Below, piece by piece: positions 3,582 through 64,000 of a DNA stretch of 64,000 bases (the first letter of the stretch is position 1; each line of letters opens with the position of its first letter). A program made the position numbers and the translations under genes. Source of the DNA: Hygrocybe punicea. Its lineage: Eukaryota > Basidiomycota > Agaricomycetes > Agaricales > Hygrophoraceae. Under the pieces are notes generated by a model. It did not search any database, was not told where the DNA came from, and saw only the letters and a program-made list of their open reading frames with translations. Where the stretch lies: contig OY744466.1 in assembly GCA_963556145.1 (NCBI GenBank), positions 3,968,001-4,032,000 of the forward strand. Reading direction: 5' to 3'.

Positions 3582-3654
3582 TATTTCAGTAAGAAAAGAC
3601 GTTCTGGATAAGCCGATGACCGATCACTTTCTTTCCTAGTCACTTGCATTGAGC

Positions 3655-13840: not shown

Positions 13841-14220
13841 ATACCCCCGGAACAAGGGGAATCGTCCCGATTAACCGGAGGGACAACGGAATCAAACACG
13901 GCAGCACAATCGATGAAATCGCAGTAGGGATCGACAGGGTCATCGGTGAACCAGATGGGAACGGTGGGAGGAACAGCAGGAGGGGGAGGCCCAATGGGAC
14001 GCACAGAGTAGAAGGATCGCGGGGTGAAGAAAGGATCAACGCCAAGATGGGCGATAGCCGTCGTGGGATGGATGGAGCCAAAGGAAGAGGGTCGCATGAG
14101 GTCGACAGCGAAGCGAACACTATGGTCACAGAGGCGGCGTTTCGAACGAGGGATGCGAAAACGAGGAGGAAGAAGATGGTAATATGGGGAAGAAGGGAGA
14201 TAAACGGCAGAGGCAGACAT
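13841..14220 (-). other. Open frame after the chromodomain, runs into the 3' LTR
   Basis: After the pol stop near 14302, a second frame with ATG near 14220 (MSASAVYLPSS) stays open through the rest of the internal region and continues into the LTR to a stop at 13459, about 250 residues in all. It is Pro/Ser-rich with no recognised domain. It could be a chance frame in a C-rich region, or an extra 3' gene of the element. Confidence 0.3.
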
Positions 14221-14301
14221 GGGGGAATGAAGGCAAGGAGCGAAGAAAGGAAAGAAAAGAGAACAGTCCTTATATACGAAAGTGAAGATTAGGGTAGGCA
14301 A

Positions 14302-17300: not shown

Positions 17301-18172
17301 GGAGAAGCGTAAGGTGATTTTGATGGTCGTATTCATCCTGTTTTCAGATTTTCGTCAAGGAACTTGTCGAGGTCTTGTTTCTCAACCGGTGACAATGGAT
17401 ACAACTTGCAATCATGATGATCCGGCGCATCTGGTTTCAGGATGATGGCGTGGTCCCATGGTTTTCGTGCTGGTAATTCATCGAAACCAGATGGTTCAAA
17501 GACATCGCGATATTCATGATATGTCTCTGGGACCAATTCTTCAAACGTCTTTTCCTTTTGTTGTTCTTGTGCCTTTATTGCGAGTTCCGTTGACTTTGTC
17601 ATGAACGAACGAAAATGTACCGGGTCCATTGTTTCTTCAATTACTCGATCAAACCAGAGAGGTCGTTCCCAAATGACTGTACTGAATTCGGTCGAACGTA
17701 TTGCTGATGGCTTACCACAACCAGAAAGACATCGTGAAAACTTGACTTCGTTTTCACGCCAATCAATTTCTGGGTTATGCTTTTTGAGCCAATCATATCC
17801 GAGGAAAATGTCCATTTTCGCTAACGTCGTTACCGCAAAATGCAGTAATTCTTGATGGTCACCGAGATGCATCTGCAATTCACAATACTCCGTGATTTGT
17901 CCAGTCTTTGGTTGTGTCCCGTCGCTCATGTAGGAATTGAATGGGTTTACATATGGTTTCATCGGAATGTTATGTGCTTTGATGTATCCGACATCGATGG
18001 CACAAATGGTACAACCACAATCAATCAGGCTGGTCATAGGATATTGTCGTCCATCTTGGGGGACAGAAACAAAACCATGAACCAACAGCGCCATACGAAG
18101 TTCGGAATCTTTTTGCGTTATTGCGCGTACTGATTCCAGTGTTTGTGGTTCTTGTGGTGAATCTTGTGGCAT
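14302..18172 (-). pseudogene. Ty3/gypsy pol: protease, RT, RNase H, integrase, chromodomain
   Basis: Domains in order on the minus strand: retropepsin-like protease with LIDCGCT (usual D-S/T-G replaced by D-C-G) and ILFGYDWL-like FLGYDWL; reverse transcriptase with YMDD; RNase H (DASDY-like start, TDHHNLEY); integrase with HHCC zinc finger (HPGHDKT...CTECQ) and D,D35E core (VDMIGPLP, SDRGSVF, QTERMNQELE); and a chromodomain ending (YYLVHWLDYP.DEDSW) that would target integration to chromatin. Lesions: TGA at 17333-17335, 15691-15693 and 15298-15300, each where CGA (Arg) is expected, and a frameshift near 16510 at the RT/RNase H junction. Confidence 0.92.
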
Positions 18173-18633
18173 GTTTTGTACTAACTATTGTACTGCTTCT
18201 GCGATTGGTCGTCGATTGAGTGATAAGACAAGTCCCGGAGAAATCTTTTCCGTCCATTGTTCGTAGATGTCAAAATCATTCAAGAGGTCGAGAGCATACC
18301 CCATTGTGGTTGAGCGAATGGCAATGATTGTCTCCATTGCGTTGAATTCTGATTCGATTGTTGTATTTCTTTTCTGGGATATTGTTTTCTCTTCTTCGTC
18401 TGCAACATGGGTATCTTGCCACGTGTTGCTTTCCTCTTTCGGCTCTGGTTTCGTTGTTTGTTTTAATTCATTGCGGAGGACTTTGAGTCTGGTGAAAACG
18501 TTGTCAAATTGTTTACATACGCGTACATCATTCTCAAGTTGTGCGATCGTGGCCTCTTGCTGTTCACGTCGCTTCTTTAAAAACCCTCCTGTTTCAACTT
18601 CAACGCCGTCAACTCATCCATCAATGCTGCGAT

Positions 18634-19575
18634 TCAGGCGTCTTTGCCATCATCGTCTTGTTGTTTTGGCGTCTGCGGTATTGTTTGCATTGATCGGATT
18701 TGTTGTCGTCCTTGTTGCTCCGGACAATTACGCGAAACGTGTCCAGGTTGTCGGCATTTGAAACAAATCCCTTTTTTCATGTACTCCAATCGTTGTTCAT
18801 CGGTCAAACGTGTAAACGTTTGTTGTCTTGGCTGGGTTCGTCGATTGTCAACGTCCATCGGTACTGATTCTGATTGGGGACGAGGTATCGTTGTTTGTGT
18901 TTGAGGGGTTGTTGTATTCGGGTTGTAACGTGTTTTCGCTGGTATATTCATAGATCGTATTTGATCCTGACGACGTCGCCACTGTTGATCGAGTTTGATC
19001 ATTTGCTCCCGCCATTCCGCCATAGTGGTCGGGATCGTCATTCCGGTGTAAATTTGGTCGATCAGCGGCTTGTTCATGTGTAACTCGACGAGTTGAATGA
19101 GGTAACTTTCATTCAGTATCTCACTGAGACCAGCAATACGTTGGAGAGTGTCAAATTCGATCCAGAACTCATCCGCTGTCATCTTGCCCTGACGCAAGTC
19201 ATTCAACTTTGTCAATGCGTCTTTCTTCTGATCGGGTTTCTCGAAATGTTGACGGAACTCCGTAATGAAGTCATCCAGGGTTCCGAAGTTGACAGGGGAG
19301 TGCTGCAGGGCGATATCGACGTACTCGTCTGCCCATCGTCTGGCGAGTCCTCCCTGCAGATACAAGAGGATAAAAAGGATTTGTTTTTCCTCTGTGTCGA
19401 ATGCAGCTCTGTTGGCCCGGATGTAAATGAACACCCCGCGGAAGAACGTTTTGAAACCCTCTTTGTTTCCGTTGTATTTAGCTGGCGGAGCAATATGAGA
19501 TTTCGGAGGCGACGGGGCTGCAGGTGCTGTAGTGGTGGTGTCATGGGTTTCATGGGTTTCTCCATTGTCTGACAT
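18634..19575 (-). CDS. Gag of the chromovirus element
   Basis: 313-residue open frame starting MSDNGETHETHD. A retrotransposon Gag region (PPAKYNGNKEGFKTFFRG, ARRWADEYV, FEKPDQKKDALTKLNDLRQG) is followed by a CCHC zinc knuckle, CFKCRQPGHVSRNC. Packages the element's RNA into virus-like particles. The frame is intact. It begins about 250 bp downstream of the 5' LTR, and pol follows in another frame. Confidence 0.92.
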   Translation of the reverse strand: MSDNGETHETHDTTTTAPAAPSPPKSHIAPPAKYNGNKEGFKTFFRGVFIYIRANRAAFDTEEKQILFILLYLQGGLARRWADEYVDIALQHSPVNFGTLDDFITEFRQHFEKPDQKKDALTKLNDLRQGKMTADEFWIEFDTLQRIAGLSEILNESYLIQLVELHMNKPLIDQIYTGMTIPTTMAEWREQMIKLDQQWRRRQDQIRSMNIPAKTRYNPNTTTPQTQTTIPRPQSESVPMDVDNRRTQPRQQTFTRLTDEQRLEYMKKGICFKCRQPGHVSRNCPEQQGRQQIRSMQTIPQTPKQQDDDGKDA

Positions 19576-19825
19576 TCTGGTTTGGGTTCGGGGTTGAGTT
19601 TGATGGTAAGGAGTTGTTGGAGGAGAAAATGATGATGAGGGGAAAGGCGCAGTTTGGACACTGGTTTGTGTTGCGACGTATTGTTCGAAGTTGTCGTCAG
19701 AGGAATCTGACGTTTCGGGTGCGAGATGATATTCTTCGTCTCGGTCGGAATCTGGGGTTCGATATCATCGGGGTTCCAGGTTGTTTTTGGTTTGAAGTCG
19801 AGAGAGTAGAGAAAGTTTAGTCTTA

Positions 19826-35891: not shown

Positions 35892-38800
35892 TCAATCGTC
35901 TTCGACATCAGAACCGGGTTCCTGTGCTTCAGGAGGTTGTTCGTCGTCGGAAGTGTTTTCGAGTTCGTTTAGTCGTTGCGTGGGAATATTGAGGAAGCGC
36001 GGCGGGAGTGTGATTGAACGGCGAGCAAAATAGGGGACAACTCGAAATGCTGCGATTGGCCGGTGAAAGACAGACCCATCAAGTTCGCAGAGAATGTAAG
36101 CGCCACCAAAGTTGCGCAAAATAACGATAAGGGGACCAAGATAGCACGGGCGCATTTTCCGGTTTAGCGCTTTCTCTATCTGTGTGTTGCGAATGAGTAC
36201 TAAGTCACTGCTTTTGAAATCGAAGTTGCGAATCGTCTTCGCGTGTTGCTTTTCGAAACGTTGTGCCGCTTTCCGGCGAGCGTCGTAAACTTGCGAGTAT
36301 ATGCGATTAATATCGTCGCTTCGTTTTTGGAGTGCGATCGTGCGTCACGCAATCAGGTCTGTAGAGGATAGGACTGAATCCGGCGGGGGTTAAAGGTATG
36401 TTGCTTCTACGATGTCGAGTGGTAATAGGGGATGAGCGCCAGTCGCTGCGAAGTAAGGTGAGCAGCCCATTCATCGTCGGATAGTCACGATAGTGATACG
36501 TTCAGCCCAAAATACTGAGTACGTCACATTGGCCCATCTAAACTGGTCGCCGTCCGCAGCTTTGAAGAGAGATTGTCGAACGTCGTAGTGCGGTCATTCC
36601 ACGAGACCGTTTGCATGGGAATTGTAGCCGGAGATGTGAATGTGGTTAACGCGGTATTGCTTCGAAAGATAAGTGAGAGATTTGATGAGCGCGGGTCCGT
36701 TGTCTGTAACGATTTCGCGGAGAGAACCCCATCGACAGAGAATATCTTTGAATATCCAATCTCCGATTGCGCGAGCGTTTTCGTTGCGAAGCATTCTGAA
36801 TTCGGGGTACTGAGTAAGCGAGCAGCGTCCTTGGATTATATATTTGTATCCGCTAGATGTCGGTAAGTGCATCGTGTCGATGAATATTTTGGCGAAAAGT
36901 GGGGCGGGCATTGCGACGACAGGGGGAATGAGAACCTGATGGGATTGGCAAAGCTGGCAAAGATGGCATGTGCGAACGAACCAGTGAATATCGGCTTGCA
37001 TGTGTGGCCACCAGAAGCGTTCTGCGATCATAGCGCGAGTTGCGTAAAATCCTTTGTGTCCTACTTTGTCGTGGGCTTGTCGCATCGGTGATCGTGCGAT
37101 ATGACTAACTTGTGCGCGCCATTCTGGTCTTTGCGCCATAGTCTAGTTCCATCGAGGAAAAAGTCTGTACAGTATCGGATGAAGGTCGCGTAGTCGGAAT
37201 TGGCGAGGCCGATCGGGCGATCTAAGTCGCTGAGCCATTTCTTTACTAGGGTTATGCGATCGTCTTCTCTGCGAGCAGCGTCAGTGCACGGTACGTCGTC
37301 GTAGGTAAGCATAGGATTGGATCCTTCCTCCTCACTGAAATGGTGACTGTCCCCAGTCATGAGCGCGGCGAAAGTGGAACAAGATCGCAACGAATGCAGG
37401 GACGGATGAGGAGTATTGATCATATGTGCAAAACCATAGAGGCGGTCGATCCAGTCTTCAGTTTCTTCTACGCTGTCCTTTTCTGGCGGAGAATCCAGAG
37501 GTTGTTGTACACGCCTTGAAAGACCATCCGGGCCGTGGTGCATACCCGGGACGTGGACTATAGTGCAGTGGAAAGTGAGAATCGTGGCGATCCAGCGGTT
37601 AACGCTAGCACTTGGCGCGATGTCTGGGTTGCATAGCATGCCTGTGATGTAGCGCGCGTCTACCTCGATGACGAGATTACCAACGCCGATTAAGTACAGC
37701 CGCAGGTCGCAGAGCACGTGATAAAGACCGAAGATTTCTAGTTTAGGTTGAGAGAAGCGCGACTCGCGATCATTTAGTGTGATAGAACCAAAGCGGTTGT
37801 AGAAACGGCAAGAAGGGTTGTCGGGATCACATTGACAGAGGATGTATCCAACAGCGATGTAGGATGTGTCGACAGCAAGAATGACCGGCGAATTTGAAGT
37901 GTAGTCGATCGGACGAAGCGCAGGTGAATCGAGAACGGCTTGTTTCAGGTCTGCCTGAGCGGCAATCTGGTCGGGACCAAATTCGAAGGGTGTGTCTTTG
38001 CGCGTGAGTTTAACAAGATGATGTGCACGTTGCGCGAAGTTGCGGATAAAGATTCGAAGAATGCCTACTGTACCAAGGAACGAGCGGACGTCGGACAGGT
38101 TGTGGCAAGGGCCCCAGTTACAAATTGTGGCTAGTTTCTCTTCGTCGGGTAAACAGCTGTTTGTTGTGTAGCGATGGCCTACTACTGTGATTTCAGGAGC
38201 GCAGAGGGTAGACTTGAAGGCGGAAAAGGTTCCCCCACAGTATTTCATGCGTTGGACAATGCAATTAAGTGTAGTGAATCGTTCCCAGACGAAGTGGCGA
38301 ATGCCCGGGTTTGCAGCGATAGTTTCGTAAGTGCCGTCATGTAGGAGATAGGACGATTTAGGGCCTTTGACTGGGACATCGTCTATGTAAGGTATCATCC
38401 ACTGCGGGATCTCGGGTTGCAGGATGAAAGTAATGTCGTCATGGAATATCGGGACTGAATTTGTCCATCCCATAGGTAGAGTAACAAGTCACAACGCTCC
38501 GAAAGGAGTTTGGAAGGTGGTATAGTTGCGCGAGGACTCGGCAATAGGTCGCTCGTCGTATCCGACGTATAAATCAAAGCAGGTGCCACAGGATCGGCCA
38601 GCGAACTGTTCGGCCATGTGTTCAGGGATAGGAGGTATGCCAGAATGTGCGATGGTCACTGCATTAAGAGGCTCGAGACTGTGAACGATGCGAAGCATTT
38701 TACCACCTTTCTTCAGAGCCGTAAACCAACACGAGCGATAGGAGGAGTTCGAGGGTTCGTAGACTTTGGCTTCGATTTTACGGTGAATAATATTGCATAC

Positions 38801-40829
38801 TTCCTCATAAATACCAGGAGGAATAGGAATGTTGCGCTGGACCCAGGGAGTGTGCGGTAATATGGGAAACTCGACGGGTGGAAAGAAATCAGTGCAAAAT
38901 CTTCCGTGCTCATTGTCGGTCCACGTTTGCGTATAAAGTCGTGCATTAGTGCGCACTCAGCCGGCCAGAGGAAGTCGCCTTCGTGAACTCTGTCAAATGC
39001 ATCGCGACGTTCCTGCGTGTAGCGGTCTGTGGGGACGAAAGGTGGAGGAGTCGGATCAAGGTCAGGAAGTTCGGCAAGCGGATCGCCAGTGATTTTGCAT
39101 TTTATACGGAATTTGTCGGGGAGTTCAGCGATGACAGGCTTGACCTTGCGAGCAACGGGCTTGTAGACTTTCTTTTGGGCGGCGAAAACACTAGTGAAAT
39201 CATCTGATATTGTAGAAGGAGACGCGGATGAAGCTGAATAGGAAAAGGATGACAAGGGATCTGGCGACGAAGGAGAAACAGAGGTTGAGCATACTGGAGT
39301 AGACGGGGAACCATTAGGAAAATTGCAGGTGGAAAGATAGATGCAGGGAACTGTAGACGAAGACGACGAGTCCACTAAATGGGTATAAGATTCAATGTAC
39401 GTAGCGTTGGTATGTTCGTCGTGCACTATTACTAGTGCGATGTCTCCGTCATCTAGTGCGTTCAGTTCCCCTTGTTGATAAAAACCGAGGACGAGTGTAG
39501 GGGTATGCCGCGCCATCGTGCTTCGCTTCGAGGGTACGTTGGAATTGTCGCCGATCTGTTCGAATTTGGATTGCATATCGTAATCGTCTGGTCTTCGTTG
39601 CGGTAATTCTTGACAACGCTTTCCATAAGTACGTCGAACGGTCGTCCCAGGAGAATATGGTACGCAGGGTCACGGATGACATGCATCTGAAGGAAAAGCG
39701 TGATGTCGCCAATTTTACAAGGAACATTCCGCGCGAGACCCAGGGACTGATCAATCGAACCATTCGCCGACTGCATATTGAGATGAATCGCCGGGTCGTA
39801 GGGAAGGCTAAACTGATGGCAGACGTCTTCCGACATTGCGACAATCTGAGAACCAGGGTCAATGATGCTACCGACTTGTTCTTGTCCGTCGACGAGCAAA
39901 TTAACGGCACGTAGAGCGTGCGATTCTTTTGCGACAGTAAGGATTTCAGGAATTTCGCCTGGCGAGAGACTCATGAGGTAGGTCTCATACGGGTCGGGAA
40001 CAATGATGGGTTGCGGTTCAGCGGAGGCATTTTTGCAAGTGTTCTCACATGACGCAAAAGGAAGTGGGTCATTGGCGAAGATGTTAACTTTTACCGGCGA
40101 TGTGCCAGGAGGTTGGACTCGCTTGGGCGTAATATCATCGCGAAGTTTCGAACGACAGTCTGGAGAAATTGAGAACAATTCCATTGGTGTGAGCGTGACA
40201 CAGGGAGCCACCATAGAGCGCGAGTAAACCTCACTAATAATCTTGGAGTCCTGGATAGGGGCTTGAGTGCGATACGTGGGTTCTTTATCCTTAGATTGTT
40301 TTAATGGTGGACCTGCAAAATTACGTTCGTGTGGCGGGCGGTACGCGGTTTCCGGTGTGGATGCGAAGGGATGGATGGGCGGTTCTGCGGTAGGAGCGGG
40401 TGTCGCAGGCAAAGGGGCTTGTTGCGCGGTTGATTGATCAGGCACAGGCTGAGCGCATGGACGAGGTAAACTGGTGGTAGACGGGACAGGTTTGCGCTGA
40501 CGAGGAATCTCTACGCCGTCAAACTTTACCTTTTTAAGCGCAAAAAGTTCGCGCTCCAGTTCCTCAATGCGCAAATCGTTAGAGCTCATCACCGACGCCA
40601 GGACGTTAGCGTGAACTGCAGGAGATACGCTATACATCATTTGACCGACATTGTTGGTACTGGTTTGTTGCGTCGCAGCTAATTGACCGGGATTGCGACA
40701 ATGCCATTCATTGATGCGCTCCTTCATAGAATTGCCGGGTAATTGGCACGGGCAGAAAGCGCCAGAGGGTAGAACGATTTTCCTGTCAATATTTTCTCGG
40801 ATGCGTCCAGCATTGATATATTCAATCAC
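35892..40829 (-). pseudogene. Pol (protease, RT, RNase H, integrase) of the 12.1-kb element
   Basis: Order on the minus strand: end of the Gag zinc-knuckle region (HVIEYINAGRI, KIVLPSGAFCPCQLPG) near 40829; protease with IIDPGSQIVAMS and ILLGRPFDVL; RT with CFDLYVGYDERP, PFGAL/LPMGWTNSV and YIDDVPVKGP; RNase H (ILAVDTSYIAVGY); integrase with HHCC finger (CHLCQLCQSHQ) and core (FIDTMHLP, IVTDNGPAL, GYNSHANGLVE); and a C-terminal domain YLGPLIVILRNFGGAYIL. Lesions: TGA at 38489-38491 and 36594-36596 where CGA is expected, a frameshift near 37100 between RNase H and integrase, and others between 38700 and 39600. Non-functional now. Confidence 0.88.
37318..37352 (-). promoter_or_regulatory. Internal copy of the polypurine-tract region
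   Basis: CCTTCCTCCTCACTGAAAT and the following GACTG...CAGTC on the plus strand repeat, with about 80% identity, the block at 31682-31722 next to the 3' LTR. A central polypurine tract is one reading; chance similarity or internal recombination is another. Confidence 0.35.
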
Positions 40830-42050
40830 ATGTGGGCAGTTCGGCCTAAAGTGACCGGGTAGGTTGCTGAAGTGGCAATTGCCATTCGCTGCTGTCTCGG
40901 ACTGAGTTGTTCTCGTAGGGGGCGCATGAGCAGTGGTATGGGAGGTATGGGATCATGGCGCAGAGCTTATAGACGCATGTGGATCCATAATTTTATTTAT
41001 CGCTTGGACCACAGTATCGACGATGAGTGTGACGTCGTCCTGTTTGATCGAAGAAGACTCGGAAGAGGTCGCGGACATTGGTTTACCTTCCTTAGGCGCG
41101 TTCGTGGGACCGGTACCATGAAGAACGAACTGCACTGCCGCTTGGATTTCATGTAGCGGATAGGGTCATCGGGAAAGTGATCAGGTAGCTTTAGCTGTAG
41201 TCGCTGCGTGACACACGTCCAGAGAGACTTTTGGAACCCGCAAATGTACGCGCGACTTTGCTCAGCTTCGGAGATGCGATTCTTTTTACAGAGAAATTTC
41301 GTGATAGTGAGGAACGCGCGATGCTAAGCGCCAAGCTCTATGATGTTTGCGATTCCCGACTGATGTTGTTTCTCGACGAGTTTCTCCATATCCGATACGG
41401 ACCATTTCCTCTCGTCTTCCGAACCAGGATAAAGCTTATACACAGCCTTTGTGAACTCTTTGTAAGTCGATGCCGGTTCGTACTCGTCGAGTGATTCCCA
41501 AAGTTCAGCAGTGTCTATGTCGAGATAGCGCAATGCATATCTCTTTTTGTCGACAGCGTCGGCTACTGCGCACGAATCAAATTGGGCCTCGAGCTCGTCA
41601 AAGTATCAGCGATGTTCGTGTGGGTGCTCCGGCGAGAAACTGGGAGCGGTATTATGACCGTGAGCGGGCATTTGCGGTGGAGTCGCCATTGTTTGAGCTG
41701 CGGGTGGTGGCGTGGGTGGACGCGATGAGGTAGACGACGAGGAGGTGCTCGGTAGAATAGGAATAGAAGAATCGAGAGTGGATGTGGATGGTAAGTTAGA
41801 AAGCGGACCGGAAGAGGGGTCGGAAGTGTGTCGAGATAAAGAACCGCTAGCTGGTGTGGGAGATTGTGGATTGTAATCGCGTGGAGAATCGTGAAAATCA
41901 AGAGGTGTGCGAGGTGAATGAGAACAAAGTCAATGTGAGGTATCGTGTTCGGAATCGGAGGAACTTTCGGTGAGTTCGTCGAGATCGCTGTCGAAGTCGG
42001 GGATATTCCGAGAGGTTGTCGCACATTGTTGCGCTTGACGCTGTACTGAG
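40830..42050 (-). pseudogene. Gag of the 12.1-kb element, broken
   Basis: The frame at 41533-41324 (RYLDIDTAELWESL, YKLYPGSEDERKW, MEKLVEKQHQSG) is the capsid-like region. It stops, and the downstream part (VTQRLQLKLPDHFPDDPYPL) is in frame after the stop. The zinc knuckle near 40870 has CHFS for the usual CxxC, so one cysteine is lost. The N-terminus toward 42050 is unclear. Confidence 0.7.
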
Positions 42051-52953: not shown

Positions 52954-53086
52954 TTTCAAGGATATGTTATGCTTGCGAAGAAGCCGCCATATGGTTGTCA
53001 GACTCACGCTGAAGACACCGAAAAACCGCTATGAACCAGGAATTAAATTTTCAAACATATTATTTGTTTGGGCATATCTCCAATTA

Positions 53087-53757
53087 CAGCCGTTTTCTTA
53101 ATTCTTGACACTTTTTGAATTTTTTAACTGTTTAAGAAAATGATGACTTAGAAAATTTTACCATGTGAAGTTATGTATCTTGTGAAATACTGAATGGATT
53201 TGAATGGTTATATATGCAAAATTTATCTATTTCATAAGGGCTTTTCAGCTGTACCATCATATCCAAGAAATACTAAGTGTGTGCAGAGATATAGATGACA
53301 TAAGATGGAATAGCTAATGAACCTTATGTGGAGTGTAACTTGACGAATACAGCACCAATTTATTGTGTATTGCACGTGACCTTGTATAACGCCACAGTCA
53401 CAACTTCATCCAAGGCCCTACAATCGGATGGCCATATCTCAGCAAGTTTTGCACATATCAACTAGTGGTTTGAAATCCCCATTCCCATACCCATAACCAA
53501 GGTGTTGACCACTTATTTTTGTTCTAATATAGCCGTTTCCAAATTCGAAAATTTGGCAATGGGTATGGAAGTCGGTTGGACCTTGCAGGCCACAGAGGGC
53601 ATCAGCCATTGTCAAACTATGTATGTACACTCCAGTGCTTATTTGCTAGGTGCTAAAGACATTTTTGACAGCTCACATGAGAACATGCATGGAAGTACGG
53701 TTGCACAGATCGGCACACGGCTTTCCCATCTGCAGTACATTTACTAGCATTTACTGT
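53087..53757 (+). repeat. Left terminal inverted repeat of the 10.66-kb element
   Basis: 671 bp; inverted partner at 62857-63742. Confidence 0.9.
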
Positions 53758-53893
53758 GGTTTCAGCTGTCCCCCCCTGGTACTCATCTGTTTTAGATCCA
53801 CAGGGAGCTATCTTGCTTTCATTCTTCTCCCCATCTGCATATTCTTACATGACATGAATTCACCGTCTGGAAATTTACATAGGGTATCAGATA

Positions 53894-55072
53894 TCATACA
53901 TAACCGCAATGGCGGAACCATCCAAATACATCAGCCTCAGTAGTCTGATAAAGAGCTTCAAGCAGTGTACAATATATCTCCGTATTGGACAACTCAGTCA
54001 TTGCCAAACGGGTATATTCACCACGACGACGTAGGCGGTATTTCATTGCTGAGAAGGCTAGTTCGATGGGGTTGTAGTCAGGGGAGTATGGCGGCAAGAA
54101 TTCATAACGCATGCCGCTGAATATATTTTAGTAGAGATCAATCTGGGCAAATGATTGCTTACTGTGACTCAATGAGCTCCAAAATCTCTGGGTGTTTATG
54201 AATACGACAGTTGTCCATAACAATGACTGATTTTGGAGCAGGAAATGGTTCCATTTGGTCCAGCAGACGTCCAATAAAGGTATAGAAAAGTTGTGAGTCA
54301 AAAGCACCTTCCACGATGTCACAATGTATAATTCCATCGTTGAGTGATAATCCAGGTAACACTGAGAATCTGTGATCATAAAAGTTAGAAGAGAAGCTGT
54401 CAGTGAATAGGCAATACTTGCCGTCGTCCACGGCAGAAGAAGGCTTTGCGTGACGCTTTTCTACCACGTATTGCCCATGCGTGTCCACGATAGGTTGTCC
54501 GGCGATCCACAGCACTCTCATCAACGAAAACAAGCTGCTCTGCATCATATGTTCCAATACGTGCAGCAAATTCTGCACGTTTCTCAGCACTTCGCTCCAT
54601 TGCGACACGAGAAAGCTATCAATGATGACCACAGGTTTTGTGAATGAGAATGTCAACTACACACCTTCTTTATGGTATACCCACCTTTTATAAGGGTACG
54701 CCATATTGTCGATGTTGATACCGATACACCACACACATCCTCCAACTCTGTCCGAAGCTCATCCAGATAAAGATCTGGAGTTTGATTCAACGTTGCAAAC
54801 ATGTGCTAGACAATTTGCTTAAGCAGAGTATAGTTGACTGAAGAAACAAGCCCACAAACCTGTATATCATAGTCACATAGTGAACGATGTATTTGAGGCC
54901 TCAATCGTTTTGGTACATTGACATTGCCTGTTTTTCTGAAATGCGCAAGTATCTTCCGGACAGAGCACAATCCTAGATCAGTGTACATGGAAATCTCCTT
55001 GGGCCCCATGGATATACTAAGACGAATGACAATCCAATGGACTTCCTCAGGGATCGGTTTGCCAGCAACCAT
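53894..55072 (-). CDS. Tc1/mariner-IS630-type transposase
   Basis: Catalyses cut-and-paste movement at TA sites. Minus strand from the ATG at 55072 (MVAGKPIPEEVHWIVIRL): helix-turn-helix regions (GPKEISMYTDLGLCSVRKIL; VSVSTSTIWRTLIKGGYT), then the DDE_3 catalytic core LVFVDESAVDRRTTYRGHAW (D1), SVIVMDNCRIHKHPEI (D2) and LPPYSPDYNPIELAFSAMK (third acid). Four introns are inferred, three GT-AG; the one after GRR starts GCAAGT and would be a GC-AG intron. With these the frame runs to the stop at 53894 without lesion. It begins 137 bp inside the left inverted repeat, as expected for the element's own transposase. Confidence 0.85.
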
Positions 55073-55169
55073 GGCGTAGATGGTTGATCCAAGTCAACAA
55101 GTTGAATTGCTTCTTTTGGTAATTTGGACCTTATCTCACAAGGAAGATAATGACATCACTTTCGGATAC

Positions 55170-58100
55170 CTAATACATATAATGATGGCCTATCCAATGA
55201 TTACGATGCTCCACCCAACTCTGCCCTGCATGGTCTGAATGGAGAACAATTGATGCCCTGATGCCTTTGTAGTGGAGATTGAAGTGAGTAATGCGGGCAG
55301 AGGGAAAGAGAGCTATGTCTCCGTTCCTCAAGCGTACCACCAAGCCCAGCTCAAGCAAACAAAGCTCACCACCAGAATGGTCACCTATCACCAAAACAAG
55401 ACAAACACGTCGATCCTTTACATCCCTGTGGCAACGTGTGATGACATTGATGTTCAGAACAAAGCCACTGAATGGATGAACGGGGGATGCTTCCTTCCCT
55501 GGGAGCACATCCACGAACATAGACAGGTCCTCGTACATTTCAAGCAGGTGCTCAATAAGCTGAGAGGAATGTATGAGCACACCAAATGAATGACCTTGAT
55601 TCGACACCGACCTTTCCTTCTACCCACAAAAAAAAATCCTCAAAAGTATTGCAAAGGTTTGTATATTCACGCGCATGTTCCTTGAGTTCCTCAGAGACGC
55701 GTGGCATGAGTTGATAGTAATTGGTCTTTGAGCACCCTTTGCGACGTAGCAGATATGGGTGCACATCATGGGGCGCACCATCTCCCTGTTCCAATGTATT
55801 AGTAACTGTGTGATAACTGTCAGCCATGAACGCACACGCGGTCCATTTCTCATATACACATCAAAGTGAATAGCAGGAAACTTGACGCCACTTGAAGCCT
55901 CAGAACTATCAGTATAAACCAGGGAAGGGCCACTCTCCACAAGCAAAGCATTGCGTATGTTCCGTTCGAGGGACGAGCGCATGTCCTGTGGCATATCTCC
56001 CCAGATGAATGCAGCCAGTGATCCATCAGAGCAATTGAGATGGACGTCTTTGCTGCAACCATGCCGATGTCGGTGGCCAATATAACACAAGGAGAAACAA
56101 AACTCACCCATCAAAAATATTTTCATCCATCAAAACATATCTATTTGGGCCCTTGACACCGCTCTCATCATATAGCTCAGAAATCTATCAAGGTCACATC
56201 AATTCTGCCCCACTCTCAAGTTCATATAACCCTTACCATACGGGCAAAATCATCACTACCCTTGGGAACCTGGGCATTGAGAGCGTACAGTCTTTGCTGA
56301 TCTGTATATGCTTTCCTTGCCTCATATTCTCTTGGGTATGGGACTGTCTTGTTCTGTCTAGCATCCATAACAAATCTAGTGTTAAGAACCATGTAGTTCG
56401 GGGACACGGGGTCAGGAACCAGAAAACCGCACAGCGGAGGGGCCTGTACGACGCTACCCAAGCTGAGCTGATGCTGAACATGGTTCTGAATGTCACTGCC
56501 TGCATCCGAGAATGGTGACAACGGCCGTTCATCCATGTTCAATTGCCTTGAGGACATGTAAGAATGGAGTAGGTTTTGATTCATAATATGGAGTTGTGCA
56601 GGCACCACCAAACGTCCCATTAGAGGCTCCAGACACCGCGCCCAGATTTCACGGTTCTGCATGAGGGACAGAAAAGAGCTGACAAAATATTATTACTATT
56701 ACACCTATTAAACCCTGATCACTTACTTTTTTTGGATGCTGTCGAAGAAATGATCAGACACATCCAAGTCCGAGCAGTCTATGTCTCCCTTCAAATCCAT
56801 ATCATGAAGCAAACTTGGTGAGAACATAGTGGAAAGTCTCAAAGGGATGTGACGTCGTAGGTAGTCTATGAGAGGAATTAGACGTTCACAAACATCCTTC
56901 CCTGCATCCGTTTCTAAAGCGTTTGGTAGGTCAAACTCTATGAGATAAACAGTTGTGCACAGAGGGAGCTACTCACCAGGATCAGGCCAGCGAAGAGTAT
57001 TTGATATGGCGTAAATCTCATCAAACTTCATCTGCGAAATCTCAGCCCTGCAGTTGTTCGCTGCAATAATCATCAGAAAGTATATAGATCCTGTGAGACA
57101 ACCTTAGCATGGACCGTGCATGACAGTAAGAGGAAGCTCACCAGCACCGGCAATGGAAGCAAACTTTGTACCGATTCCTACCCATGTGCGAAAGGTTGAT
57201 AATGACGGGCCACCATCCATCCCCATTAAGTGAAGATTGTAGACATTAGCCACTGACTTATACCTGTTCGTCCTCAAGATGCTACAGGAAGCTGATAAGA
57301 CACAGCGTGTCAACATAAGAAGGACCCACCAGTCTGCTTTTGCTGCTAGCTGCAGCATATTAATCATAGTAATGAATTCCAGCCCAGTGGCCATTTCCAG
57401 GCTGCGTTGGCAACGCCGGACCACGGACTGCAGAGAGTCCGTCACGAAAGCACCATTCTCACCCTCCCATGCCCCACCTGCCACCAAAGCTCGCATTGAC
57501 TGCATCCATTTCTGGGTTGATGCATTCGACAAATTGCTGATAGCACCCTGTGATAAATTGGAGATAGCCTCTGCGGCACGTCCTCCCAAAGTGCTGACAG
57601 GCTTCTCAATGACCTCCCAAGCTTTCTGCTGCTTCTTCCCTTTGTTCTTTTTCTTGTGCTTCGTACCACCACGATTGCATTCCCCAACCCTGTGAACCGC
57701 ATACGCGCCCGCCCCAGCACCACAACCTTCCCGCTCCCCAATACGGTTTGAACGGCGTCGCTCCCTTCGATCCAATTGGTTTTGGGCAGTGTAAGAATGC
57801 GCGTGGTCGGTGTGGATCTGGATGTATGGAGGAAGAACTTAGAAAAAAAGGGAAACGGGGAATGTTGCTCACCGTATTGGCACTGGCATTCTGCAGGGAG
57901 TCCAGCACGATGTGTGAAGGTTCAGGCGTCGAAGGAAAAACTCCAAACGCTGAGGAGACGCCCTGGGTGGGTGAAGGAAGGCTACCACAAAATGGACTCC
58001 CTGGACTGGCAGAATGCGCGTGGTTGGTGTGGATCTGGATCTGGATGTATGGAAGGTTGGACAATGAAGGAAGAACTTAGAAAAAAAGGGAAACGGGGAA

Positions 58101-58780
58101 TGTTGCTCACCGTATTTGCACTGGCATTCTGCAGGGAGTCCAGCGCGATGTGTGAAGGTTCGGGCGTCGAAGGAAAAACTCCAAACGCTGAGGAGATGAC
58201 CTGGGTGGGTGAAGGAAAGCTACCACAAAATGGACTCCCTGGACTGGCAGAATGTGTGCGGTCACCGTCTGCATTCTGTGAGAAGGACTTGAGCCTGATG
58301 TGTGAAGGGAATGGTCGCAAAGGCTGCGTCCACATGGACATGGACTCACTGCACTGGCAGAATGTGTGTGGTCAGCATCCCATGAGAAGGACCGGAGCTG
58401 GACATGTGAAAGTTCAGCCGTGGAAGGCAGTCATGGTCCAGTGGACTCACCAGAGTGGCAGAATGCGTTGGGTCTGTGTCATTCCGAGAGACCGGACTTG
58501 CAGAATGCACATGGTTACCGAAGGCATAGAGCTTTTGGTATATGGCAAATATACCTGGTGGCAGACTGTCGGCAGATTGATGGAGGAACTGGAGCATGTC
58601 CAAGAGCTCCTTCGGTGAAAAGTCCATCAGTACCGGAAGCAGTCCCCTGATGCATCAGCCGCTCCACTGGGCCCGCGAGACCGAAAGTGTTCGACAGAAT
58701 GCTCAAAATACTTATCATACGCCGTCATCCCACATAAAAGGATCTTGGCTGCAAGACCGACAAAGGTAAAAGAGCCAGTA
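55170..58780 (-). CDS. TET/JBP-like 2-oxoglutarate/Fe(II) dioxygenase, multi-exon
   Basis: TET/JBP enzymes oxidise 5-methylcytosine or thymine in DNA. Minus-strand exons whose phases agree: about 57810-57330, 57281-57142, 57060-56977, 56937-56727, 56678-56237, 56184-56108, 56052-55836, 55785-55612 and 55559-55170. The last exon carries the double-stranded beta-helix: PFSGFVLNINVITRCHRDVK with the HxD iron ligands, GDHSGGELCLLELGL, LRNGDIALFPSARITHFNLH with the distal His, and GIRASIVLH with the 2OG-binding Arg. The N-terminal half has a Lys-rich patch and a conserved fungal region (LEFITMINMLQLAAKAD, GGPSLSTFRTWVGIGTKFA). The 5' part (57790-58780) is Ser/Pro-rich with duplicated exons, and the start is uncertain (candidates near 58627 or upstream). 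Another 2OG-dioxygenase subfamily is possible. Confidence 0.7.
57783..58258 (-). repeat. Tandem duplication, 238-bp unit, two copies (exon plus intron)
   Basis: AATGGACTCCCTGGACTGGC recurs at 57991 and 58229, and the whole 238-bp block is nearly identical. Each copy holds an exon encoding SSAFGVFPSTPEPSHI and DSLQNASANT and the intron after it. Older, weaker copies of the HSASPxSP motif continue to about 58500. Confidence 0.75.
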
Positions 58781-58856
58781 GGTAAGAGTGAATGCTAAAC
58801 TTTCTACGTACTGTAAACTTGAACTCACCTATCTCCATGGAAAAGGCAAAGGCACC

Positions 58857-60648
58857 ATGTCAACCCTGGCGACTTTCATCCCCAGTATGATCTTTCCTCT
58901 GCCCTCAGAGCATGAATTCACCAAGGTACCGACTTCAACCTCCACGGCCCCGTACCAGGTCGGCATACCACCCCCCAATCAGGAAGGCCGTCCCGCTTTC
59001 ATCATATGTGATCCATCTTTACCCCATCGCATGCTGGTGTCGCTTCAAGCCTACCTGCAAACTGCACCTGGCAGACAGCTAGCCCCCTCTGCAGTGCTCA
59101 TTCAAGCCGTTGCAGGACTGGAGAGGTCCCTGAGGGGTTATGTCCTAGACCATGAAACATCATCCAACCTCCTTTTCCATCGTGCTTTCAACCCCATCAG
59201 CTGTGCAGTGGAGGAGGTGGACAGTAATCCGTCACAGCCTGTGACTACCACACATAACACACTGTTCAACCAGATTCCCGATGGAACCTATCGCCCACAC
59301 CGAGACGCGGATGCACAGCTTCACGTCGAGTTCAAGAGCTGGACAGCATTTTCACATCATGCGACGAATATATTACAGCTTGGTCGTAACAGTACAGTTC
59401 TGGAGCTGAGCCCTAGTGAGACAGGGCATCGCTCCATAATATTTAAGGTGTGCTGATCTGAACCTACAGGAAATGCTCACCTCACCATTTGTACCCCCAG
59501 ATTGGGATATCTATGCTGTCAGATCTGAAAAAGATACCATATGCTCTGCTCTTTGGAGGCGATCGGTACATGCTCTTCACTCTTTGCCCAATCCCTGGAG
59601 GGCCCCTGCACGGCCTTCTGTGCTCAGATATTCTGCATATCCTGGATGCGACAACGCCATTTATGCCCCTAATCATTTACTGTCTGTTGGGTGTGGGTGC
59701 CAAGGTCTTGGATGTGCCGCAGCATGTCCAAGTTCCTACAATCTCATTGGTAACGTCATTAGGCCGTACACGACACGCAACGAAAACAGCTAACGCAAAC
59801 GTCCATGCAAATGCTGCTAAGCTGGCAACAATATTTCCTGGTGTAACTTTACAGGTGCTTTTCTTTCCATCAATCGCTTCGTCTCAATCAAAGGTCATTT
59901 TAGGCTGAAAATTTAGGGCTAACATTCGATCTCGATCGATGTCAACAGGAGACGTACGTGCTGAGTCTTTGCAATGTCATGTCTTCTTTGCACATGCGTG
60001 GGCCTCCTCCCTCCACCTTCAAGCAGTGGCTGCACAAGGCGACGCGAGTTCTGAAGTCACTTCCTTGGCAATGTCAGCAATGCCGAAAACTTATTCTTAC
60101 AACATATCTGGAGAGGGGATCAGTTGGGAATGTATTCAGAGGGCATTACGCTGATATGCAACAAGAAGACATTGTCGGAAAGGTTGTGGTGGATGGGCCG
60201 TCTCAGGAACTGCTATATCACGAAGCCAGAATATATGCAGATCTCACAGCACTTCAGGGCTCAGCAATACCATCTGTGCATGGTCTCTATGTCAGTGGGC
60301 ATCTTCTTGTGCTGGTCATGCAATATGCAGGAGAGAAATTTAGGTCCTTCTCTGACCTTACATTGCGTCAGCGGTATGTCCCCACCTATACTAGACTATC
60401 ACATCTACTTTACTCTTTTTAGGTCAGATCTTTGGGCTACTCTCCTGTTACTTCATCAGGCAGGAGTTTGCCACCAAGACTTACGTCCTGACAATGTGGT
60501 CTTATCTCCCACAGGCGCCATCCGCGTACTGGACTTCTCACATGCGACTCTCCATAACTGCAGGGGAATAGGTGAATGTTCAGAGCTTCAGGATGCCAGG
60601 CTGATGCTGCAGTTCCCTCCATCTGAACCCCATGATTCATATTATTAA
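58857..60648 (+). CDS. Fungal kinase-like protein, 531 aa, 4 exons
   Basis: Exons 58857-59447, 59501-59854, 59949-60373 and 60423-60648 sum to 532 codons with matching phases. The N-terminal 330 residues match nothing I know. The C-terminal 200 look like a protein-kinase fold: a loop LERGSVGNVFRGHY near the Gly-rich position, IVGKVVVDG with a candidate Lys, LYHEARIYADL, then a catalytic loop CHQDLRPDNVV and DFSHA in place of DFG. Such short, divergent kinases are common in mushroom genomes. Divergent from the dioxygenase gene with a small gap, so the two may share a promoter region. Substrate unknown; activity uncertain because of the DFS motif. Confidence 0.72.
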
Positions 60649-60809
60649 AATGTGCAGTATTTCAGTGACGTTTTGTTTTGTCAAATGGTACAAATAAAAA
60701 TAGGCGAGATACTAAATATGTGTTAGTACACAAGTTTTTCTCTCGCGTCTCACGTAGGCTCCCTCGCATCTCTCTCTAAGCTCTCTCGCATCTCTCTCTC
60801 TTTGCTGAT

Positions 60810-62700
60810 ATGGGACGGAAAGCTGTGAAACAATGTAAGGAGGAAACCAAAGCAAAACGACGGCGCACCACCCAAGGGCCTGCCACTTCTGTGCCAGATG
60901 GACCCACAATGGTGTCCGATGAAGAGACGGAGACGGAGCCTGTGGTAAAGACAACGAACGACAATATGAATGGGGTCAAGGCCATTGCAGAGCTGGGGAA
61001 AAGAGTGAGATTTGTTACCACTACACGCACAACCCAATCACGTTCCTCCATCGCTTCAAAATCTGGAGATACCCTTTCCACACAGGCACATTCCAATGCA
61101 GAAGCATCAAAGCTGCAAAGCCAGGAAAAAACCTCAGTCAACAAAGTCCAGCGTCCTGGGCGTAAGGCGTCAAGTGGAGTCACTGCCTTGCTTCAAAGGT
61201 TAGCCATGGATGATGTTTCCGAGGAATCTGGTGAGGAATCTGGTGAGGAATTTGATGTCAATGAGTATGAGGAAGAGGAAAATTCCCAGGAAAGAGTTGA
61301 TGAGGAGGAAGAGCTCAAGAGGTGGCACGTGACCGATGATAACGATGTCATCAAGTTCAAGCCAAAGCTGAAGACCACAACTAGCAATAAGGTAGCAAAA
61401 GGGAAGATTACAGTGGAATTGAGTGAAAGTGATGATGACGACGATGGTGAGTTGCTTCTCCGCAACAGAAAGGGAATGATCTTACATTATCACATTTAAT
61501 AGAACCATTCAACTTCACCGTTGAAATAAATGATAGATCGAAAGGGTCACGCACTGTGGAAATTCTGTCATCAATGCTGTCTTGGGGCGATTTCCAGCAA
61601 AAACTAGCAGAGGCACTCAACATATATCCGACATCACTACAGGCACAGTATCGATTCAGCTCTGAGAATAAAGACTCACTGCCATGTGATCTCACCTCAC
61701 AGCAACAATTTACCACTATGCTGCTACGTCTTCGTCCTCTGGTAGTCCCAGCAATGCTCACCAATGGTCAGCATTCTGCAAGAAAAATGAAAGCTGTGGC
61801 AGTGCAAATCTTCAACAAAGGTGACGATCCTGTGCAAAATAATATAAAGGTCTGTAGCACTTTTGCTCGCGGCCATAACTAAATTAGTATCAACAGAAAA
61901 ATCCTGGGGCTTCAAAGACGTCGACCGTCGGTGACAAGGAAGTTGTAAAGTCCAATGGGGATTTGTTCCATGAGCAAAAAGTTGCAGCGAGAAGGGCACT
62001 TATTGAAGCGCATTCGTGTGACATTCATAGCCTTCCCGACAAGCCTGTCCTATGTTGGAAAGATTCCCAGAACTCCTGCTACCCCATTACCGAAAGTAAC
62101 CTCAATTTATGGGCCACCAAGATCGTGTGTTTGGTTGTTTTATTCCAGTCAAATGACGCTGACCTTTCACTGAAGGTCAGAGATCCTGGGAACAATACTA
62201 TTGACGTGAAACCTGCGGAACTCAACTTCTACAGCAATGCACCACGTTCCAGGAATCCCGGCCGTCCAATAGCACAGACACAGGCACAGGCACCGCTGCC
62301 CAACCCAGGTTTTCCATATGGCTATTACCCCCCACCATATCCCCCGACATGGCCCGGCTACAGTCAAGGCCCACCATCCACTCTCAATCCAGCACAAACT
62401 GCAGCAGTTGCGCCTATCAAAGTCAACTATCCCATGATAATTCCTTGGTTGAACTATTGCGACCAACATCCTGATCGCTGTGGAGAAGATTTCAGTGCAC
62501 ATGCTGATAAATTCAATAAAGAAGGTTATCGCCGTCTCCACCAGCTTACTGGAGAACGTGTTTCTGTGGAAAAGTTGTCTGATTGGCTTGGAATTGGTAA
62601 AGGTACAGCAGATTTGTTAATACGTTATGCGGAAGAGGACTTGGAGTTGGTGAAGGCTGGAACATTCACAATGACAGTTGAAGAGGACTTGTATGCATAG
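60810..62700 (+). CDS. Unknown 595-aa protein, acidic/basic N-terminus and possible SAM-like C-terminus, 3 exons
   Basis: Exons 60810-61446, 61503-61849 and 61897-62700 give 596 codons in one frame. Residues 1-30 are Lys/Arg-rich (KAKRRR, a likely nuclear signal). Residues about 130-215 are Asp/Glu-rich. The middle (FNFTVEINDRSKGSRTVEIL, WGDFQQKLAEALNI) looks folded. A Pro/Gly/Tyr-rich linker around residues 430-465 (GYYPPPYPPTWPGY) follows. The last 90 residues (LNYCDQHPDRCGEDF, ERVSVEKLSDWLGIGKGTAD, LIRYAEEDLELVK) resemble a small helical SAM-like fold. I do not recognise the family. It is cargo of the 10.66-kb element, ending about 155 bp before the right inverted repeat. Confidence 0.75.
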
Positions 62701-62856
62701 AAACACGGATATTGTGACTTGGAAACCCTTTGTTGAGGAGATATGCTTTGAAACATAGATTTTTTTGTTAGTGGGAAGAACATATGAATTAAATAGTTCT
62801 ATGCGAGTAACAGTACACCCCACTACAATAAAGGTATTAGTGAGAGGGGGACAGCT

Positions 62857-63742
62857 ACAGTAAATGCTAGTAAATGTACTGCAGATGGGAAAGCCGTGTG
62901 CCGATCTGTGCAACCGTACTTCCATGCATGTTCTCATGTGAGCTGTCAAAAATGTCTTTAGCACCTAGCAAATAAGCACTGGAGTGTACATACATAGTTT
63001 GACAATGGCTGATGCCCTCTGTGGCCTGCAAGGTCCAACCGACTTCCATACCCATTGCCAAATTTTCGAATTTGGAAATGGCTATATTAGAACAAAAATA
63101 AGTGGTCAACACCTTGGTTATGGGTATGGGAATGGGGATTTCAAACCACTAGTTGATATGTGCAAAACTTGCTGAGATATGGCCATCCGATTGTAGGGCC
63201 TTGGATGAAGTTGTGACTGTGGCGTTATACAAGGTCACGTGCAATACACAATAAGAGATTGTAAGGGATGAAATGTTCCGTTTTTCAAGGAGAATACACT
63301 CCAATACCGGGATTTTGATAAACTCAGATTTTTACTTGATAATTGTAATATTCTAGTTTTATGGGAATATTGCTAATTTAAATTTCAATAACACAAAATA
63401 TCAAAAATCCCGGTATTGGAGTGTATTCTCCTTGAAAAACGGAACATTTCATCCCTTACAATCTCTTAAATTGGTGCTGTATTCGTCAAGTTACACTTCA
63501 CATAAGGTTCATTAGCTATTCCATCTTATGTCATCTATATCTCTGCACACACTTAGTATTTCTTGGATATGATGGTACAGCTGAAAAGCCCTTATGAAAT
63601 AGATAAATTTTGCCTATATAACCATTCAAATCCATTCAGTATTTCACAAGATACATAACTTCACATGGTAAAATTTTCTAAGTCATCATTTTCTTAGACA
63701 GTTAAAAAATTCAAAAAGTGTCAAGAATTAAGAAAACGGCTG
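62857..63742 (-). repeat. Right terminal inverted repeat, interrupted by a MITE
   Basis: Inverted partner of 53087-53757; the interrupting MITE occupies 63254-63466. Confidence 0.9.
63254..63466. mobile_element. 213-bp MITE with long inverted repeats, TA target
   Basis: Ends AGAGATTGTAAGGGATGAAA and its complement; about 65-bp arms around an A/T-rich centre; TA at 63252-63253 and 63467-63468. The empty site (CACAATAAATTGG) is preserved in the left inverted repeat near 53362. Confidence 0.9.
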
Positions 63743-63744
63743 TA

Positions 63745-64000
63745 ATCATGTGATTGATTTCCGTGCAAGTCAATTACGTGCATGTTTTGTGCGCAACGTT
63801 ACTTAACAATTGTGACAGCAACGAAGACGAAGATGAAACGAACACAACAACAGTGGCAATGTCAACGGCAACGACAATGAAGACGACAACGAAACCCAGA
63901 CGTGGACGAGGATTCGTCGTCGAGGGACGACGGCGAATAAAACGAGAGGAAGGAGCACCCACCTCCCAATCACCAGGTTTGTTCCCAAGGCCCTGTTGAC
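63745..64000. other. Right edge, no supported gene
   Basis: A plus-strand frame from about 63754 (Thr/Asp/Glu-rich, then Arg-rich) is open to the window end, but shows no recognised motif and is cut by the edge. Confidence 0.3.

What the first reader, a model, noticed from the sequence alone, without database searches (positions are those of the whole stretch)
53087..63742. A 10.66-kb Tc1/mariner-type element carrying a TET/JBP-like dioxygenase, a kinase and a third cargo gene
Seen: 671-bp near-identical inverted repeats, TA target sites, an IS630-type DDE transposase just inside the left repeat, and three further multi-exon genes in intact frames. Known: Tc1/mariner elements are normally 1-3 kb with one gene, and fungal TET/JBP genes have been reported in association with KDZ transposons. 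A cargo-bearing Tc1-type element with a DNA-oxidising enzyme would be unusual. Inference: the enzyme may help the element escape cytosine methylation, and the kinase and SAM-like protein may be partners.
Basis: partly seen in the sequence, partly recalled or inferred. Interest (0 to 1): 0.93.

Follow-up and report, generated by a model that had tools for sequence, protein, structure and literature searches.

The report
Tc1-type transposon with borrowed TET–kinase cassette
A 9.9-kb cut-and-paste transposon in a mushroom-type fungus carries a probable DNA-oxidising enzyme and a kinase-like protein that it most likely took over, as a pair, from an unrelated transposon, which suggests that transposons trade ready-made tools that may act against the host's DNA-methylation defence.

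Summary
The element is real, but its borders differ from those reported. The 671-bp repeat is composite: its outer 276 bp belong to a 765-bp palindromic MITE; its inner ~395 bp are the terminal repeats of a 9,889-bp element (53363-63251) inserted in that MITE. Thirteen loci (lower bound) carry the same four genes in one order: DD34E IS630/Tc1 transposase (T), TET/JBP-like dioxygenase (E), kinase-like gene (K), unknown gene (D). Insertion duplicates TA inside TTAA (29 of 29 distinct flanks seen); three sites have empty counterparts.

E and K form a divergent two-gene cassette. The pair sits at 22 other loci with no such transposase nearby; the two checked are Plavaka (CACTA-clade) transposons. 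A rooted tree nests the element's E among Plavaka copies (AU p=0.009), so the cassette most likely moved from Plavaka to Tc1. Related Tc1 elements carry T+D without E-K; one group holds a coatomer-alpha-like gene in that slot.

Copies show a ~19-fold excess of C-to-T change at CpG, consistent with methylation. Kojima 2025 lists 11 TET-bearing DNA transposon lineages, not Tc1/mariner. E's chemistry, K and D are unproven; E lacks the Asp that CcTET needs for 5mC.

The parts
53087..53362 (+). Left part of a 765-bp palindromic MITE (outer part of the reported '671-bp repeat'), ending in the TA target copy 53361-53362
   Evidence: Genome-wide 276-bp pairs ~490 bp apart; joined flanks align to an intact MITE copy
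63252..63742 (+). Right part of the same MITE, starting with the TA copy 63252-63253
53363..63251 (.). The Tc1/IS630-type element proper, 9,889 bp
   Evidence: Tips TTGTGTATTGCACG... preceded by TTA in 29 of 29 distinct flanks; 13 clusters with the four genes in the same order
53363..53757 (+). Left terminal inverted repeat, 395 bp
   Evidence: 1 mismatch to the right TIR
62857..63251 (-). Right terminal inverted repeat
53894..55072 (-). T: IS630/Tc1-type transposase, 325 aa, 5 exons, D150 - D235 - 34 residues - E270
   Evidence: DDE_3 99.2 bits, HTH_33 31.5 bits; exons; DD34E
55170..58627 (-). E: TET/JBP-like dioxygenase. Exons 55173-56935 modelled (498 aa). ATG at 58627 proposed by analogy with L030; exons upstream of 57100 not resolved
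   Evidence: Tet_JBP 24.1 bits, below cut-off 34.9; HxD...H...R invariant in three families; fungal homologues
58628..58856 (.). Proposed 229-bp shared divergent promoter region between E and K
   Evidence: ATG at both ends; partly homologous to Plavaka element L030; function inferred
57826..58262 (.). Tandem ~238-bp direct repeats near the E 5' end
58857..60648 (+). K: kinase-like protein, 546 aa, 4 exons; N-terminal ~370 aa without Pfam match
   Evidence: Pkinase 33.2 bits for the C-terminal piece, 30.6 for the whole, cut-off 31.7; PDB kinases by profile
60810..62700 (+). D: 595 aa as modelled (578 if the in-frame 51-bp stretch at 62125 is an intron); frequent companion of T; no Pfam match

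Best explanation
A recently active cut-and-paste DNA transposon of the IS630/Tc1/mariner group. T excises the element and inserts it into TTAA, duplicating the central TA. T and D are the core of this lineage. In this family and in L031 they are transcribed outward from the middle, and the middle is a slot that different families fill with different genes. Here the slot holds a divergent E-K cassette that was most likely captured from a Plavaka transposon. E probably oxidises methylated bases (most simply 5-methylcytosine at CpG) so that the transposon genes are less well silenced. K probably acts with E, since the two travel together, for example by phosphorylating a silencing factor or tuning E; D probably assists T. 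SHOWN: borders, target site, empty sites, copy number (lower bound), gene order, T+D and E+K as separate recurring units, tree position of E, CpG decay. INFERRED: cut-and-paste activity, E activity and substrate, K target, D role, benefit to the transposon.
For: 13 clusters with T-E-K-D in one order, 2 with T-E-K. 29 of 29 distinct flanks end TTA. Empty sites: MITE copies L029, L045, L046; joined flanks of L014: 40 matches, 39 of them over all 80 bases; joined flanks of L009: 43 matches, 38 over all 72 bases, most with one base more in the genome. E-K without such a T within 9 kb at 22 clusters; of two checked, L030/L032 carries a Plavaka transposase (PF18759, 4.8e-85) and L033 one 76% identical to it. 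Nucleotide homology of the window element to L030 is confined to E, K and the region between. Outgroup-rooted E tree: Tc1-borne copies together 99.9/100; with Plavaka-1 98.9/98; these with Plavaka-2 96.1/94; grouping the four Plavaka copies together is rejected, AU p=0.009. E stems alike in both homes (0.146 Tc1, 0.164 Plavaka-1), so constraint did not visibly relax. Cross-family dN/dS: E 0.17, K 0.22 (L030), T 0.17 (L031). CpG transitions 583/7746 against 186/45937 at other G/C; CpG o/e 0.59 against 0.92. Cytosine methyltransferase: 5 exon-level matches over cut-off. A parallel: rust IS3EU elements carry TET between transposase and a (different, alpha-type) kinase (PMC12730594).
Against: No biochemistry. 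E scores below the Pfam cut-off and lacks the Asp that PMC12730594 reports as essential for CcTET activity on 5mC. Copies decay at CpG along the whole length with no protected stretch, so E does not keep copies unmethylated. Within the family pooled dN/dS is 0.41-0.70, highest for E; changes shared by two or more copies are not clearly more constrained than singletons (T 0.74/0.84, E 0.64/0.56, K 0.52/0.55, D 0.70/0.64). D between families has saturated dS, so no ratio. PMC8889193 (passages) links high 5hmC/5fC to silencing in Laccaria bicolor (in Coprinopsis, low-methylated genes with 5hmC are more active). A related group carries a coatomer-like gene in the same slot, so carriage alone proves no benefit. 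The cross-family dN/dS rests on alignments partly spoiled by intron read-through and was not redone.
Confidence: 0.6

Rival explanations
1. Passenger capture: E and K were picked up by chance, as the coatomer-like gene was in a related group, and do nothing for the Tc1 element.
For: Coatomer-alpha-like gene at 16 loci, 13 of them between a T and a D by my reading; E within-family pooled dN/dS 0.70; of the 9 other copies in which all four genes could be lifted none has all frames open.
Against: E and K stay paired in both kinds of transposon; E stems of similar length in both homes; all four modelled frames open in the window copy.
Confidence: 0.25
2. E is a hypermodification enzyme (thymine, 5gmC-like or 6mA chemistry) rather than a 5mC demethylase, and marks element DNA for another purpose, with K as partner.
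For: At the CcTET Asp337 position E and P0004 have Val; by the marks given in PMC12730594 E is neither AG nor PE type (the PU type could not be compared); weak Tet_JBP score.
Against: CpG decay makes 5mC on the element the likely pressure; Pfam recognised no glycosyltransferase or other modifying enzyme among the four genes, though D and the K N-terminus remain unassigned.
Confidence: 0.2
3. Tc1 was the donor and Plavaka the recipient of the cassette.
For: Only two Plavaka elements were checked for their transposase; the genomic context of the outgroup E proteins is unknown; older Tc1 carriers could be lost.
Against: Tc1-borne E nests among Plavaka-borne E; E-K in one shallow Tc1 clade but in two deep Plavaka clades; T relatives L031 and L035 lack E-K.
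Confidence: 0.12
4. One large 10.66-kb element with 671-bp TIRs, as first reported.
For: The outer ends are TA-flanked and nearly identical.
Against: Outer and inner parts occur apart in the genome; empty MITE copies.
Confidence: 0.01

Closest known systems
TET-bearing fungal DNA transposons (Kojima 2025, PMC12730594)
   Same: TIR elements with a TET/JBP gene; TET genes move between transposon superfamilies; Plavaka among the carriers; rust IS3EU elements have TET between transposase and an alpha-kinase gene in opposite orientation, a similar layout
   Different: 11 lineages listed; 'mariner', 'Tc1', 'IS630' and 'TTAA' occur 0 times in the main text. Agaricomycete TET types there are AG (with the Asp) and PE (HxE); E here is HxD without the Asp. 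Transfers described there are of TET genes; here a TET-kinase pair is shared. K matches Pkinase/APH, and no alpha-kinase family was returned by Pfam
Tc1/mariner (IS630) transposons
   Same: DD34E DDE_3 transposase, HTH domains, TIRs, TA duplication
   Different: 9.9 kb and four multi-exon genes instead of 1-3 kb and one gene (typical size recalled); TTAA target in all flanks seen
Plavaka transposons
   Same: The E-K cassette
   Different: No Plavaka transposase recognised in the window element; TA duplication inside TTAA with TTGTG tips, not the Plavaka termini described in PMC12730594
KDZ (Kyakuja-Dileera-Zisupton) elements with TET/JBP
   Same: Transposon-borne Tet_JBP protein; TETs with the AG marks occur in this genome (4 of 4 checked, of 122 matches)
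   Different: Different transposase and different TET type

Membership tests
Tc1/mariner (IS630) transposon | DDE_3-type transposase with DD34D/E spacing and HTH | tested here: met
   DDE_3 99.2 bits, HTH_33 31.5 bits; DD34E
Tc1/mariner (IS630) transposon | TA target duplication | tested here: met
   TA single in empty sites, double around copies
Tc1/mariner (IS630) transposon | Terminal inverted repeats shared by mobile copies | tested here: met
   395-bp TIRs, 31 tips in the genome, reversed control 0
Tc1/mariner (IS630) transposon | Small (about 1-3 kb), single gene (typical, recalled; not strictly defining) | tested here: not met
   9,889 bp, four genes
TET/JBP dioxygenase | Match to Tet_JBP (PF12851) | tested here: inconclusive
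   24.1 bits, E 2.3e-5; 3 of 3 family members match, but the cut-off is 34.9
TET/JBP dioxygenase | HxD...H...R active-site residues of 2OG-Fe(II) dioxygenases | tested here: met
   Invariant in the three sequences of A3
TET/JBP dioxygenase | Double-stranded beta-helix fold | tested here: inconclusive
   Single-sequence model, mean pLDDT 37, not usable
TET/JBP dioxygenase | Oxidation of methylated bases in DNA | not testable with these tools
   -
AG-type TET (CcTET, Kyakuja) | Gly (or Ser) and Asp at the CcTET Gly331/Asp337 positions (His +5/+11) | tested here: not met
   E has Asp/Val; four other TETs of this genome (L040-L043) have Gly/Asp
PE-type TET | HxE instead of HxD | tested here: not met
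   HRD in E
PU-type TET | Residues that set the rust type apart | not tested
   The marks are in a figure that is not held
Plavaka transposon | Plavaka transposase (PF18759) | tested here: not met
   Pfam scans of the element's pieces and genes returned none; homology to L030 confined to E-K
Protein kinase | Pkinase domain with catalytic Lys, Asp and metal-binding Asp | tested here: inconclusive
   Pkinase 33.2 bits for the C-terminal piece, 30.6 for the whole protein, cut-off 31.7; APH 23.3, cut-off 23.2. H-x-D and D-F-S in the model, N-F-S in L030

The most novel reading that the evidence does not exclude
The TET-kinase pair is a transferable anti-silencing cassette that moves as a unit between unrelated transposon superfamilies of mushroom-forming fungi, and this T+D lineage of Tc1 elements has a standing cargo slot that takes up such genes (E-K here, a coatomer-like gene in a related group). 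Oxidation and phosphorylation would be two arms of one counter-defence, with a TET type outside the AG and PE types described for these fungi.
Probability: 0.35. Interest if true: 0.85.

Novelty: new variant of a known kind. Interest (0 to 1): 0.68.

Why it matters
TET/JBP genes on fungal transposons are known, but how they spread and whether they help the transposon are open. Here the likely donor, the recipient, the shared stretch and the empty state are all in one genome, with natural controls: T+D elements without the cassette, T+D elements with another cargo, Plavaka elements with it. That makes the anti-silencing idea directly testable by comparing methylation, expression and mobility of related elements with and without the cassette.

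Tried and rejected
Single 10.66-kb element: rejected. Smaller element nested inside: the nesting is the other way round (element in MITE). A whole Plavaka nested inside a Tc1: no Plavaka transposase recognised and no homology to L030 outside E-K (L032 was not compared). RIP-like CpA decay: C-to-T before A 92 changes at 1638 positions, before C 52 at 1121, before T 42 at 1219, before G 583 at 684 (positions counted over the whole element, changes without a 1-kb repetitive stretch). CpG-protected promoter: none, decay 12-27% in all 20 bins. Structure models of E exon 6 (mean pLDDT 37) and of D homologue P0002 (37): unusable, no fold search made. PDB sequence searches for E and D: no meaningful hit; for K kinases. 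Protein search with K: one distant kinase hit. First lift spoiled by intron read-through, redone exon by exon; the dN/dS was not redone. Species not identified. Whether the K N-terminus is a nuclease fold (invariant E-F-K) is a recalled resemblance, not tested.
Full report
CHECK OF THE OBSERVATION. The inverted repeats are there, but as two pairs: 398 bp (53360-53757 / 62857-63254) and 280 bp (53083-53362 / 63467-63746), plus a 65-bp hairpin pair on the right only. A search of the genome (92.2 Mb, 42 contigs) with the 671 bases shows why: the inner part lies mostly in pairs that span 9.7-11.3 kb, the outer part in pairs within ~765 bp (40 of 137 candidates scored). The outer part is a palindromic MITE. 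Joining the window flanks with one TA gives a sequence that aligns over 775 columns (94%) to an intact MITE copy, L029, and is identical around the junction; L045 and L046 read the same across it. So a 9,889-bp element (53363-63251) was inserted into the MITE, and the reported coordinates 53087-63742 are the ends of the MITE.

THE ELEMENT. Tips TTGTGTATTGCACGTGACC; TIRs of 395 bp with 1 mismatch. The 30-base tip pattern occurs 31 times with up to 3 mismatches, reversed control 0. All 29 distinct flanks seen end in TTA, and the three empty sites contain TTAA: the MITE, and the joined flanks of L014 and L009, which match as unbroken blocks in two repeat families (39 of 40 and 38 of 43 matches over the full length). 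Target is therefore TTAA with TA duplicated. Of the 20 stretches fetched, eight hold a copy complete at both ends (L009-L012, L014-L017); L013 lacks the first 124 bases; L018 and L019 together hold one more with a 1.3-kb insert; the other nine hold partial, split or broken copies, L028 only 265 bases.

GENES. T: 325 aa, DDE_3, DD34E. E: 498 aa modelled of a longer protein; Tet_JBP by a weak match; 8 homologues, among them Artomyces, Dentipellis, Trametes, Ganoderma, Russula, Athelia and Suillus; 5 of the 6 that I scanned match Tet_JBP, all below the cut-off. K: 546 aa, kinase-like C-terminal part, N-terminal part without a match. D: 595 aa as modelled, no Pfam match, one homologue, in Russula earlei (44%, E 6.8e-86). 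In the window copy all four models are free of stops (the splice sites were chosen on this copy). Of nine other copies in which all four genes could be lifted none has all frames open.

RECURRENCE. Matches of the four proteins and of PF12851 were clustered at 9 kb: 13 clusters with T, E, K and D; 2 with T, E and K; 23 with T and D; 3 with T, D and another TET; 22 with E and K; 1 with E and T; 1 with E and another TET; alone: T 43, E 8, K 8, D 7, other TET 96. L031, a T+D element, has 371-bp TIRs with related tips (TTA|TTGTTATTGTCACGTGAC) and a coatomer-alpha-like gene between T and D. That gene matches strongly at 16 loci (8 as one 245-aa block, 8 in pieces); by my reading 13 lie between a listed T and D, two more beside one of them, one beside neither. 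L035 is a smaller T+D element (4.8 kb fetched) with T and D in tandem.

ORIGIN OF THE CASSETTE. Nucleotide homology between the window element and L030 covers parts of 55172-57764 and 58370-60617, i.e. E, K and the region between, and nothing else. L030 continues into a Plavaka transposase (L032); L033 has the same arrangement. L034, L036, L037 and L038 were fetched without their surroundings, so their transposase was not checked. Identities of E: window-L030 0.73, window-L033 0.68, L030-L033 0.66; of T: 0.74 and 0.71 to L035 and L031. With eight outside proteins as outgroup the Tc1-borne E copies group together (99.9/100), then with Plavaka-1 (98.9/98), then with Plavaka-2 (96.1/94). Forcing the four Plavaka copies together is rejected (AU p=0.009, KH and SH p=0.025). 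The simplest history is transfer from Plavaka to Tc1. The two stems are alike (0.146, 0.164), so E seems to have stayed constrained after the move. The nucleotide identity of E in the two homes (71.6% over 2.6 kb) may be set beside the single case above 70% (about 80%) reported in PMC12730594.

WHY AN OXIDASE. Across 14 copies the transition rate is 7.5% at CpG and 0.4% at other G/C (583/7746, 186/45937; a 1-kb repetitive stretch left out), and CpG o/e is 0.59 against 0.92 in window 1-53000. The genome has cytosine methyltransferase matches (5 exon-level matches). That fits methylation of the element at CpG; no other repeat was measured as a control. Against a simple story: decay runs along the whole element; E lacks the Asp needed by CcTET for 5mC, which four other TETs of the genome have; within-family evidence of constraint is weakest for E (pooled dN/dS 0.70); and oxidised cytosines go with silencing in Laccaria, though not simply in Coprinopsis (PMC8889193, passages).

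WHAT IS KNOWN. PMC12730594 (parts 1, 3, 4, 5 of 7 and two term searches) reports 11 TET-bearing lineages and transfer between them; Tc1, mariner and IS630 do not occur in its main text. It describes one similar layout, TET between transposase and alpha-kinase in rust IS3EU. A 2026 review (PMC13297926, passages) names neither Tc1/mariner nor Plavaka. Searches of the paper library (listings and starts of abstracts) showed no TET-bearing Tc1/mariner element. Iyer 2014, the first report of KDZ and TET/JBP, is not held and is cited from recall and through PMC12730594; supplementary tables were not open to me, so an unlisted case there cannot be excluded.

VERDICT. A real, recently mobile, four-gene Tc1/mariner-type element; on the papers seen a new carrier lineage for TET/JBP genes, and a clear case of a two-gene cassette shared by two transposon superfamilies. 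The anti-silencing role is likely but unproven.

Noticed in passing
L031:3807-4541 and 15 other loci: A coatomer-alpha-like gene (COPA/B second propeller, Pfam 129 bits) rides in the T-D slot of a related Tc1 group; 8 loci match as one block, 8 in pieces, perhaps an intron-poor and an intron-bearing form.
   Followed up: partly
G000:C34:119528-170427 (L025, L026): One copy is split at element position ~1200 by about 40 kb, with a 4-base overlap of the two halves: perhaps a very large nested insertion.
   Followed up: no
G000:C35:3256857 and 3305175 (L020, L021): Two parts of the element that together make nearly one copy, breaking at positions 7175/7187 and in inverted orientation, ~48 kb apart: looks like an inversion.
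   Followed up: no
L029, L045, L046; window 53087-53362 and 63252-63742: The MITE itself also sits in TTA/TAA at the ends printed (tips CAGCCGTTTTCTTAATT or near), so it may be mobilised by a related transposase.
   Followed up: partly
whole genome: 122 Tet_JBP matches, 96 of them over the family's cut-off (counted); four of four checked carry the Gly/Asp marks of CcTET, a fifth too (L044).
   Followed up: partly
L030:1697-1936 (-); P0008: A DUF6532 reading frame beside E in the Plavaka element; in a Russula compacta protein a Tet_JBP-like part and DUF6532 are joined in one gene model.
   Followed up: no
window 3640-6877, 13459-19764, 37061-40952: Surroundings: a reading frame resembling a Prp22-type DEAH helicase and retroelement-like frames with gag/pol features (by eye only).
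   Followed up: no
window 54370-54421: One transposase intron reads best as GC-AG (donor GCAAGT).
   Followed up: no
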